Shown here: piece after piece, positions 3,759 to 11,702 of the stretch
Position numbering within the stretch: position 1 is the first letter of the stretch
Layout of the letters: the number at the start of each line of letters is the position of its first letter
NCBI GenBank assembly: GCA_041228335.1
Contig: CP166130.1
Span: 1,512,638 to 1,576,637 of the forward strand
Direction of reading: 5' to 3'
Origin: Alphaproteobacteria bacterium LSUCC0684
GTDB taxonomy: Bacteria > Pseudomonadota > Alphaproteobacteria > Puniceispirillales > UBA1172
Length of the DNA: 64,000 bases
Notes under the pieces: generated by a model
The model's database searches: none
The model's input: only the letters and a program-made list of their open reading frames with translations
What the model was told of the DNA's origin: nothing
Made by a program: the position numbers and the translations under genes

Positions 3759-4739
3759 ATGTCCAAGAGCCAAAAGACGGCAAAAGCCGAGTGGAACTAT
3801 CACCCTGATCTGCCGATCGACAACAACCCCCTTTTTTCCTGGCCCATCCGCTGGAAGGATGCGGCCATCTATTATCGCGATGGCTGGCTGACGCTCTCGG
3901 AATCCACGATCTTCATTCTCCTGGCTTGCGTGGCCTATCTCTGGTTCAGCCCGTCTCCTGACACCGCCGCCGTGCCGGACTGGCGGTGGATCGGCGGCAT
4001 CTGGCTTCGCAATCTCATGGTCACGGCCCTCGTTGCCGGCGTGCTGCATTATTATTTCTACCATCGCCGGGCGCAGGCAGCCGAGCTCAGATACGTGGCG
4101 CCGTTTCTTTCCCGGGGGGAGAGGTTTCTCTTCGGCAATCAGCTCCATGACAACATGTTCTACACGCTGGTGAGCGGTGTTGCGATCTGGACCGCTTATG
4201 AAGCGATCCTGTTCTGGGCCATGGGGTCAGGACATATCCGCATCGTCCGTTTCAGCGAAGCCCCGGTCTGGACGATTGCCGCCCTGCCCCTGATCTCAAT
4301 CTGGATTTCGCTGCATTTCTATTTCGTGCATCGCCTGCTTCATCTCAAGCCTCTTTCTGAGAAGTTTCACGCCCTGCATCATCGCAATGTCAATGTGGGG
4401 CCGTTTTCGGGTATCTCGATGCATCCGGTCGAGCATCTTTTCTATTTTTCCTCAACCCTGATCCATTTCATCGTCCCGACGCATCCCATGCACGTGATCT
4501 TCCATTTCTACATGCTCGCGCTGTCGGCGATTTTCGGCCATACCGGTTTTGACGCCCTCCTGGTGCGCAACACGCGGCGGCTGGCCATCGGGCATTTCCA
4601 TCACCAGCTGCATCACCGGTATTTCGAATGCAATTACGGCTCGGTGGACATGCCGTGGGACAAATGGTTCGGCTCCTTCAACGACGGCACCGCCGAAGCG
4701 CGGAGACGGGCAAAAAAACGACTGAGGGAGCTTGTCTAG
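3759..4739 (+). CDS. Membrane fatty-acid hydroxylase / sterol desaturase family protein
   Basis: A 326-residue integral membrane protein of the di-iron fatty acid hydroxylase superfamily. The histidine boxes are clear: HFYFVHRLLH near residue 182, HALHHRNVN near 203, HPVEH near 222, and HFHHQLHHRYFE near 280. At least four hydrophobic segments are visible (about residues 45-65, 82-100, 140-158 and 171-190). The family hydroxylates or desaturates lipids such as sterols, carotenoids or fatty acids; no substrate can be inferred. The start at 3759 is supported by GGAG 10 bases upstream; the open frame extends further 5' but lies antisense to the racemase. Its end overlaps the convergent GNAT gene by four bases. 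Confidence 0.85.
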   Translation: MSKSQKTAKAEWNYHPDLPIDNNPLFSWPIRWKDAAIYYRDGWLTLSESTIFILLACVAYLWFSPSPDTAAVPDWRWIGGIWLRNLMVTALVAGVLHYYFYHRRAQAAELRYVAPFLSRGERFLFGNQLHDNMFYTLVSGVAIWTAYEAILFWAMGSGHIRIVRFSEAPVWTIAALPLISIWISLHFYFVHRLLHLKPLSEKFHALHHRNVNVGPFSGISMHPVEHLFYFSSTLIHFIVPTHPMHVIFHFYMLALSAIFGHTGFDALLVRNTRRLAIGHFHHQLHHRYFECNYGSVDMPWDKWFGSFNDGTAEARRRAKKRLRELV

Positions 4740-5206
4740 GTTCGGGCAAGGGATTTTCTGAAAAATACCCGCTCATACCCGTCTTCGGTGCGGCGGTGTG
4801 TTTCCTCAAACCCCATGCGCCGATACCAGCCGATATTCCGCGCCATGAGGCGATTGGTGTAAAGCTGATAATACCCGGCACGCCCGGCAAGACAATCCTC
4901 CAGATGGTCGAGGAGCAACCGGCCGATCCCCTGGCCGGCATGATCGGGAGCAACGGCGATATTCTCCAGCCACCAGCCGGTTTTCTTCGATATCAGGATG
5001 GCATAGCCGAGCACGTCCCCACCCGCTTCGGCGACAAAGACCGTATCACGGGCAAGGTGATGGCCGTAATCCGCCAGCATCGGCGCGGGTTTCCTTCCCA
5101 TCACGGGAATATACTGCCGATAGGCCGCCGCCGCGATGCGTTCAAGATCTGGCTGATCCTGCGCCTGAGCAGGCCTGATGGTGATATGAGGCGGCGGATG
5201 ATCCAT
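4736..5206 (-). CDS. GNAT family N-acetyltransferase
   Basis: A 156-residue single-domain GNAT acyltransferase. It starts ITIRPAQAQDQPDLERI, and the acetyl-CoA binding motif A is ENIAVAPDHAGQGIGRLLLDHLE (Q/RxxGxG/A as QGIG, about residues 84-106). It is followed by YTNRLMARNIGWYRRMGFEE, the usual C-terminal beta-alpha-beta element. The acceptor is unknown. It lies downstream of rpsI on the same strand, separated by about 385 bases that contain five terminator hairpins, so it probably has its own promoter. The stop codon overlaps the end of the convergent hydroxylase-family gene by four bases. Confidence 0.8.
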   Translation of the reverse strand: MDHPPPHITIRPAQAQDQPDLERIAAAAYRQYIPVMGRKPAPMLADYGHHLARDTVFVAEAGGDVLGYAILISKKTGWWLENIAVAPDHAGQGIGRLLLDHLEDCLAGRAGYYQLYTNRLMARNIGWYRRMGFEETHRRTEDGYERVFFRKSLART

Positions 5207-5362
5207 CCCGAAACGCTACATCGGGCGGGCGGTATTTTCAATCAAGATGAGGCTTTTGAGGCGCGGCAGAGAAGGCGCTGCCGGGAAAATGGGTTCGTTT
5301 CGGGAAAAACGCTTTGGCGGGGGTGAATGGGACGCTGAAGCTGCCATACCCGCATGAATAAA

Positions 5363-5567
5363 GGGGCGGCGATGACGCGCAGCCCCCCCTGTCCAAGATA
5401 AAAAAGGGGCGGCGATAGCGCGCAGCCCCCCCTGTCCAGCATCAAAAAAAAGGGGCTTCGATCGCGCGCAGCCCCCCTGTCCAAGATAAAAAAGGGGCGG
5501 CGATAGCGCGCAGCCCCCCCCTGTCCAGCATCAAAAAAAAGGGGCTTCGATCGCGCGCAGCCCCTTT
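5363..5567 (-). repeat. Tandem array of five terminator-like hairpins
   Basis: Five near-identical hairpins stand head to tail, with left GGGGC arms at 5363, 5406, 5452, 5494 and 5541 and matching GCCCC arms at 5382, 5425, 5471, 5513 and 5560. Two variants occur: loop-side TTCGATCGCG (5452, 5541) and GGCGATAGCG (5406, 5494; the 5363 copy is a variant), so the larger period is about 89 bases. On the reverse strand each GC stem is followed by a T run (six to eight, broken in the last copy), the form of an intrinsic terminator reading out of rpsI. Spacers contain CTGTCC plus either AGCATC or AAGATA. Bases 5207-5362, between the array and the GNAT gene, show nothing recognisable. Confidence 0.85.
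5533..5567 (-). terminator. First intrinsic terminator of the rplM-rpsI operon
   Basis: Read on the reverse strand this is AAAGGGGCT, a 12-base loop, AGCCCCTTT, then further T residues: a nine-base-pair stem and a T run starting about 25 bases after the rpsI stop codon. It is the copy of the five-hairpin array closest to rpsI and has the best terminator form. Confidence 0.8.
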
Positions 5568-5590: not shown

Positions 5591-6112
5591 TTAACGCTTT
5601 GAGAACTGGAAGCTCCGGCGGGCCTTGCGGCGGCCGTATTTCTTCCGCTCGACCACGCGGCTGTCACGCGTCAGGAACCCGCCTGCCTTGAGCACCGGCC
5701 GCAGACCAGGCTCAAACCGGATGAGGGCATGGGAAATGCCATGGCGCACGGCACCTGCCTGGCCTGAAAGCCCGCCACCCTTTACCGTGGCAATGACGTC
5801 AAACTCACCGGTGCGGCCAGCGGTTTCAAACGGCTGGGCCAGCAGCATCTGCAGCACCGGACGGGCGAAATATTCCGCCACGTCACGGCCGTTGACCGAC
5901 ATCTTGCCGGTGCCGCGCTTGACCCATACCCGGGCGGAGGCGTCTTTCCGGCGGCCGGTTGCATAGGAACGGCCGAGGCTGTCAATCCTGGGTTCAACCG
6001 GTGCGGCGGTGTCAGTTTCAACCGCCCCGTCCTTCAGCGCGCCCAGCGCGGCCAAGCCTTCGGCAACGTTTCCTTCGGCAAGGTGTTCTTGAGTTTCTGT
6101 TTCGTTTGCCAT
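5591..6112 (-). CDS. rpsI: Small ribosomal subunit protein uS9
   Basis: Ribosomal protein S9, 173 residues. The conserved domain begins near residue 48 ([19 protein letters not shown]) and ends with the invariant basic tail [17 protein letters not shown], whose C-terminus reaches the P-site tRNA. The first 45 or so residues are acidic and Ala/Glu-rich, an extension seen in several alphaproteobacterial S9 proteins and absent from the roughly 130-residue Escherichia coli protein. It is the second gene of the rplM-rpsI operon, four bases after the rplM stop, and is followed by the five-hairpin terminator array. Confidence 0.97.
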
Positions 6113-6116
6113 GGGA

Positions 6117-6587
6117 CTACCTCGCGGTGTTCTTCGGGTTCATCGCGGCCACGTCAAGCGAGACGGGCTGCTGGGCTTCGTGGGGATGGCTGTCGCCGGC
6201 ATAGACATGCAGCTGCTTCATGCAGCGGCGGCCAAGAGGTCCACGCGGGACCATCCGCTCAACCGCCTTGATGATCACCCGCTCAGGGTGCTGGCCATCA
6301 AGGATCTTGTCCGCGGTGCGAGACTTGATCCCGCCCGGATAGCCGGTATGCCAGTAATAGGTCTTGGTGTTGCGCTTGTTGCCCTTGAGCAGGACTTTTT
6401 CCGCGTTCACCACGATGATGTTGTCGCCGCAATCCATGTGCGGTGTATAGGACGGCTTGTGCTTGCCGCGCAGCCGGTTGGCAATGATCGAAGCCAGACG
6501 GCCCAGAACAAGCCCTTCGGCATCCACAACAAACCAGGCCTTTTCAATATCAGCCGGCGTTGCGGTAAAGGTTTTCTGTTGGGACAT
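6117..6587 (-). CDS. rplM: Large ribosomal subunit protein uL13
   Basis: Ribosomal protein L13, 156 residues, an early 50S assembly protein. Family motifs include [37 protein letters not shown], and [10 protein letters not shown] followed by [19 protein letters not shown]. The start at 6587 (MSQQKTF) is preceded by GGGG nine bases upstream; an upstream ATG ten codons earlier falls in the 5' leader. A strong sigma-70-like promoter lies 40-68 bases upstream. Confidence 0.97.
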
Positions 6588-6626
6588 GAAAGAACCCCAT
6601 CGGTGTTGGTTAATCACTGGAGTGGA

Positions 6627-6805: not shown

Positions 6806-7128
6806 CTGAAAGATCATGGTGGGGAGGGATTAAATGATCACGGCAGGGAAGGATTGAACAGTCATGGCTCGGAAAGCGGAAAGCAGATGGAAGGGAAGGA
6901 TTGAACAGTCATGGCGCGGAAAGCGGAAAGCAGATGGCGGGGAGGGATTGAAAGATCATTGCGTGCCCCGGAAAGCAGATGGCCGGGAGGGATTGAACAG
7001 TCATGGCTCGGAAAGCGGAAAGCAGATGGCGGGGAAGGATTGAAAGATCATTGCGTGCCCCGGAAAGCAGATGGCGGGGAAGGATTGAACAATCATGGCA
7101 CGGAAAGCGGAAAGCAGATGGCGGGGAG
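6806..7128 (+). repeat. Minisatellite of 45/47-bp units upstream of trpG
   Basis: Six contiguous units begin with GGATTGAA at 6851, 6898, 6945, 6990, 7037 and 7082 (lengths 47, 47, 45, 47, 45, 47), preceded from about 6806 by two shorter decayed copies. Type A units contain CAGTCATGGCTCGGAAAGCG; type B units contain AGATCATTGCGTGCCCCGG; both share GGAAAGCAGATGGC. Order is A-A-B-A-B-A. There is no unique spacer, so it is not a CRISPR. Unit lengths are not all multiples of three, so no reading frame is preserved. In the gene-free stretch 6588-7201, the rest holds the rplM promoter and an AT-rich segment (about 6655-6730) with nothing further recognised. Confidence 0.9.
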
Positions 7129-11580: not shown

Positions 11581-11598
11581 AAAACATGATCATGATGT

Positions 11599-11658
11599 GA
11601 AAATCGAGCCGGTTTGAAAATCGAGGGGGTTTTGAAAATCGAAAGGTTTGAAAATCGA
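11599..11658 (+). repeat. Four GAAAATCGA direct repeats in the lexA leader
   Basis: The nine-base word GAAAATCGA occurs at 11599, 11616, 11634 and 11650, a spacing of 17, 18 and 16 bases; two copies extend to GAAAATCGAGGGGGTTTT. They lie between the lexA promoter and its ribosome site. The 11515-11551 segment downstream of moeA shows only a weak possible hairpin. Confidence 0.85.
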
Positions 11659-11702
11659 GGGGGTTTTCCATCAGGCCACCGCAGATATACCGGGAGAGGG
11701 CC

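What the first reader, a model, noticed from the sequence alone, without database searches (positions are those of the whole stretch)
5363..5567. Five tandem intrinsic terminators after the rplM-rpsI operon
A terminator hairpin with T run has been duplicated head to tail into five copies of two alternating variants (period about 89 bases per pair). All face the same way, out of rpsI and towards the GNAT gene. Most other junctions in this window have no terminator, so this redundancy is striking. It may insulate a weak gene from a very strong operon, or be a product of slippage.
Basis: partly seen in the sequence, partly recalled or inferred. Interest (0 to 1): 0.6.

Follow-up and report, generated by a model that had tools for sequence, protein, structure and literature searches.

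The report
Duplicated transcription stop signal after rpsI
In this marine SAR116-group bacterium, the ordinary stop signal after a ribosomal-protein operon has been copied head to tail into about five near-identical signals by DNA duplication, probably giving a redundant transcription block that relatives manage with a single copy.

Summary
On the minus strand, starting 23 nt after the rpsI (S9) stop codon, five head-to-tail hairpins (T1-T5) point toward a co-directional GNAT gene. T1-T4 each have 6-8 T; T5 has only TTTATT and fails a strict terminator test. T1=T3 and T2=T4 are identical over 40-42 nt. The two 88/89-bp dimers differ only by one G in a G-run, so the last step was a recent, or homogenised, dimer duplication. 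The unit occurs nowhere else in the genome. Among 73 compact strong terminators in 1.26 Mb of this genome, only these have a near-copy nearby. Of 103 other alphaproteobacterial rpsI genes, 84 have 1-2 terminators within 300 nt and none has a duplicated hairpin. Relatives with rpsI followed by GNAT have one adjacent terminator. T1 sits where the relatives' single terminator sits, so copies 2-5 are a lineage-specific expansion. The genome carries other intergenic minisatellites, including a larger one upstream of the same operon. Best explanation: a terminator-derived minisatellite formed by slippage or recombination at G-runs. Its passive effect is serial redundant termination; selection for insulation is neither shown nor required. 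Unusual in detail, ordinary in kind.

The parts
5533..5567 (-). T1: terminator hairpin (AAAGGGGCTGCGCGCGATCGAAGCCCCTTT) plus T8 tract; the likely orthologue of the single rpsI terminator of relatives
   Evidence: Starts 23 nt after the rpsI stop; 103 other rpsI loci have a median first-terminator start of 24 nt, quartiles 22-26.5; -15.1 to -15.7 kcal/mol
5488..5522 (-). T2: terminator hairpin, variant A, plus T6 tract
   Evidence: identical to T4 over 42 nt
5444..5476 (-). T3: terminator hairpin, variant B, plus T8 tract; copy of T1
   Evidence: identical to T1 over 40 nt
5400..5432 (-). T4: terminator hairpin, variant A, plus T6 tract; copy of T2
5357..5389 (-). T5: hairpin, variant A', with interrupted T tract (TTTATT); the weakest terminator candidate
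   Evidence: Folds at -17.3 kcal/mol but fails the T-tract test
5591..6112 (-). rpsI (ribosomal protein S9), the upstream gene
   Evidence: Pfam PF00380, E 1.9e-47
6117..6617 (-). rplM (ribosomal protein L13), first gene of the operon; ATG start likely near 6588
   Evidence: Pfam PF00572, E 8.1e-46
4736..5206 (-). GNAT acetyltransferase, the co-directional downstream gene
   Evidence: Pfam PF13508, E 1.4e-17; orthologues follow rpsI in several members of the order

Best explanation
A lineage-specific minisatellite seeded by the ordinary rpsI intrinsic terminator. Step 1 (inferred): misalignment at the G-runs that end one unit and begin the next (GGACAGGGG / GGGGCTG) duplicated the terminator, and the copies diverged into variants B, A and A'. 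Step 2 (near-identity of the copies shown, mechanism inferred): the B-A dimer of 88/89 bp was duplicated again, recently. Consequence (inferred): RNA polymerase leaving rplM-rpsI meets T1 first, and most transcripts end there; T2-T4 catch residual readthrough in series, with T5 adding little. The extra copies are redundant and probably near-neutral.
For: Tandem array far above chance. T1=T3 and T2=T4 over 40-42 nt, the two dimers differing by one G. Unit unique in its genome. T1 is in the orthologous position. 103 other alphaproteobacterial rpsI loci: 76 with one, 8 with two and 19 with no terminator within 300 nt, none with a near-copy of its hairpin. G001, G011, G016, G027 and G033, in which GNAT follows rpsI, have one terminator adjacent to rpsI. 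Other apparently noncoding minisatellites in the same genome at window 6842-7128, L235:12899-13319 and L235:13536-13659 show that tandem duplication of noncoding DNA happens here.
Against: No second strain of this species was available, so copy-number variability (the hallmark of a slippage locus) is untested. The outer stems (GGGGC / GCCCC) are invariant in all copies while the inner 3' arm, loop and spacer vary, which could reflect selection for terminator function; with only three distinct variants this is weak. Termination itself is predicted, not measured.
Confidence: 0.8

Rival explanations
1. Selected insulator: the copies were retained because the very strong rplM-rpsI transcription must be kept out of the GNAT gene, and serial terminators multiply the block.
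For: All copies point the same way and outer stems are intact in every copy. Four of five have good T tracts. The GNAT leader has no clear sigma-70 promoter (best match 6 of 12), so its expression may depend on what passes the array.
Against: Relatives with rpsI followed by GNAT use one adjacent terminator. No other compact strong terminator found in 1.26 Mb of this genome is duplicated. Near-identity of the dimers means little time for selection to have acted.
Confidence: 0.12
2. Copy-number tuner: unit gain and loss by slippage changes readthrough into GNAT, giving heritable variation in its expression.
For: Recent dimer duplication suggests a mutable array; a repeat tract acting through a terminator is known in Streptococcus gallolyticus pil1 (PMC3894217), by a different mechanism.
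Against: If T1 is efficient, later copies would hardly change readthrough; no population data; GNAT is not an obvious phase-variable gene.
Confidence: 0.05
3. A dispersed repeat family (REP- or MITE-like) or an assembly artefact.
For: Palindromic units in tandem look superficially like repeat-element clusters.
Against: No other copies in the genome. The assembly is one 2.70-Mb contig, 100% complete, and the copies alternate in type (B-A-B-A-A'), which argues against a simple single-unit assembly stutter. Raw reads were not available.
Confidence: 0.03

Closest known systems
Tandem intrinsic terminators at strong operons (E. coli rrnB T1-T2, from own knowledge) and the galM Rho-independent plus Rho-dependent pair (PMC9927376)
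   Same: More than one terminator in series after an operon, the later ones catching readthrough
   Different: There the members are different sequences and two in number; here the members are near-identical duplicates, four or five in number, and restricted to one lineage
Bacterial minisatellites / VNTR loci (such as the minisatellite-like regions of Mycobacterium tuberculosis, cited in PMC2267715)
   Same: Head-to-tail intergenic units of 40-100 bp with near-identical neighbours and higher-order periodicity
   Different: Here the repeated unit is itself a complete intrinsic terminator; variability between strains is not shown
Streptococcus gallolyticus pil1 repeat-terminator switch (PMC3894217)
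   Same: A tandem repeat next to a terminator, copy number of the repeat being mutable
   Different: There a pentanucleotide repeat alters a leader peptide whose translation opens a single terminator; here the terminator itself is repeated and no switch is shown

Membership tests
Intrinsic (Rho-independent) terminator | GC-rich hairpin immediately followed by a T-rich tract | tested here: met
   T1-T4: -13.3 to -15.3 kcal/mol by the strict scan, with 6-8 T. T5 fails on the T tract.
Intrinsic (Rho-independent) terminator | Transcripts end at the site | not testable with these tools
   Needs Term-seq or Rend-seq
Bacterial minisatellite | Tandem head-to-tail units of about 10-100 bp, well above chance | tested here: met
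   TRF score 366 against a maximum of 67 in 60 shuffles
Bacterial minisatellite / VNTR | Copy number differs between strains or close relatives | tested here: inconclusive
   No duplicated rpsI terminator in 103 other loci, so it differs between species; no second genome of this species or genus was held
Dispersed palindromic repeat (REP/MITE-like) | Many copies scattered in the genome | tested here: not met
   Only the array matches
CRISPR-like array | Identical repeats separated by unique spacers | tested here: not met
   The whole period repeats, with no unique spacers

The most novel reading that the evidence does not exclude
A natural terminator array whose copy number mutates by slippage and sets the level of readthrough from a ribosomal-protein operon into a GNAT acetyltransferase gene, a tunable transcriptional valve.
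Probability: 0.05. Interest if true: 0.6.

Novelty: new variant of a known kind. Interest (0 to 1): 0.3.

Why it matters
It is a clean natural case of a terminator multiplied in place, usable for asking how much serial terminators add and whether strong hairpin/G-run terminators are seeds for tandem duplication. If neutral, it is a caution against reading redundancy as design.

Tried and rejected
Repeat-family reading rejected by own-genome searches. CRISPR-like reading rejected (no unique spacers). Known RNA family: Rfam gave only two sub-threshold matches outside the array. Coding minisatellite: spacings of 43/46/42/47 break frame, so the overlapping 141-aa ORF is not a plausible gene. Promoter inside the repeat (TGGACA): no -10 partner (best 6 of 12). 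Direct evidence on strain variation: no second genome in the genus. Literature searches for natural arrays of near-identical terminators found no direct precedent in the held library, which lacks most subscription journals. Searches were failed calls (argument errors) and gave no data.

Full report
What is there. On the minus strand the gene order is rplM, rpsI, array, GNAT (Pfam assignments), with a fatty-acid-hydroxylase-family gene convergent beyond GNAT. The array begins 23 nt after the rpsI stop codon. Read 5'->3' it is B-A-B-A-A': B = GGGGCTGCGCGCGATCGAAGCCCC + T8, A = GGGGCTGCGCGCTATCGCCGCCCC + T6, A' = GGGGCTGCGCGTCATCGCCGCCCC + TTTATT. Both forms keep the outer stem and an inner 2-3 bp stem with one mismatch, whose position differs. 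T1-T4 pass a strict hairpin-plus-T-tract test and T5 does not. Only T1 is preceded by AAA, so only T1 could also work to some degree in the opposite direction.

More than chance. TRF score 366, against a maximum of 67 in 60 dinucleotide shuffles of the whole window.

Where it comes from. The unit occurs nowhere else in the 2.70-Mb genome. Two of the order-mates can be named from their sizes: G016 has the 2,753,527 bp of Candidatus Puniceispirillum marinum IMCC1322 (PMC3368413) and G022 the 2,592,803 bp of LSUCC0396 (PMC12262181). The host is therefore most likely a member of Puniceispirillales (SAR116), in a genus with no other held genome. Of 103 other rpsI genes (nearly all alphaproteobacterial) with at least 300 nt of downstream sequence, 76 have one, 8 have two and 19 have no predicted terminator within 300 nt; none has a near-copy of its hairpin; the first terminator starts at a median of 24 nt. 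T1 is therefore the ancestral terminator by position, and the rest is added. GNAT orthologues follow rpsI in G001, G011, G016, G027 and G033, each with one terminator adjacent to rpsI; G001 has a second, unrelated hairpin 188 nt after the stop.

How it grew. The T1-T2 and T3-T4 dimers are identical except for one G in a G-run. Each junction lies in a run of 6-8 G, where the end of one unit (GGACAGGG) meets the start of the next (GGGGCTG), a plausible site of misalignment (inference). Other apparently noncoding minisatellites are present: window 6842-7128 (period 47/92, upstream of the same operon) and a cluster at L235:12700-13659. In a sample of 1.257 Mb (46% of the genome), 73 compact strong terminators were found and only those of this array have a near-copy within 250 nt. 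So terminators are not generally duplicated in this genome, while noncoding DNA is occasionally expanded in tandem.

What it does. Termination is predicted only. With T1 intact and in the position used by relatives, most transcripts should end there; later copies would act on the remainder. No clear sigma-70 promoter was seen between the array and GNAT (the consensus may not suit this group), so the supply of GNAT RNA is unresolved. Selection for insulation or tuning is possible but has no positive evidence beyond intact stems.

Limits. One genome of the species, no reads, no RNA data. The terminator scan uses my own thresholds, and about half of the genome was not scanned for duplicated terminators. 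The comparison set is limited to sequences found by rpsI similarity, and a few of its loci may be the same organism held in two collections.

Noticed in passing
window 6842-7128: A larger minisatellite (TRF score 448; period 47 with a 92-bp dimer period) between the divergent rplM-rpsI operon and a trpG-like gene. The two strongest arrays of the 64-kb window thus flank the same ribosomal-protein operon.
   Followed up: partly
L235:12700-13659 (G000:C1 about 1992700-1993660): An apparently noncoding stretch of about 1 kb made largely of tandem duplications (periods 16, 102 and 44), another cluster of minisatellites in this genome.
   Followed up: partly
window 11598-11667: Small tandem array, period 17/34 (TGAAAATCGAGGGGGTT).
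   Followed up: no
window 4736-4739: The GNAT gene and the convergent fatty-acid-hydroxylase-family gene overlap by 4 bp at their stop codons.
   Followed up: no
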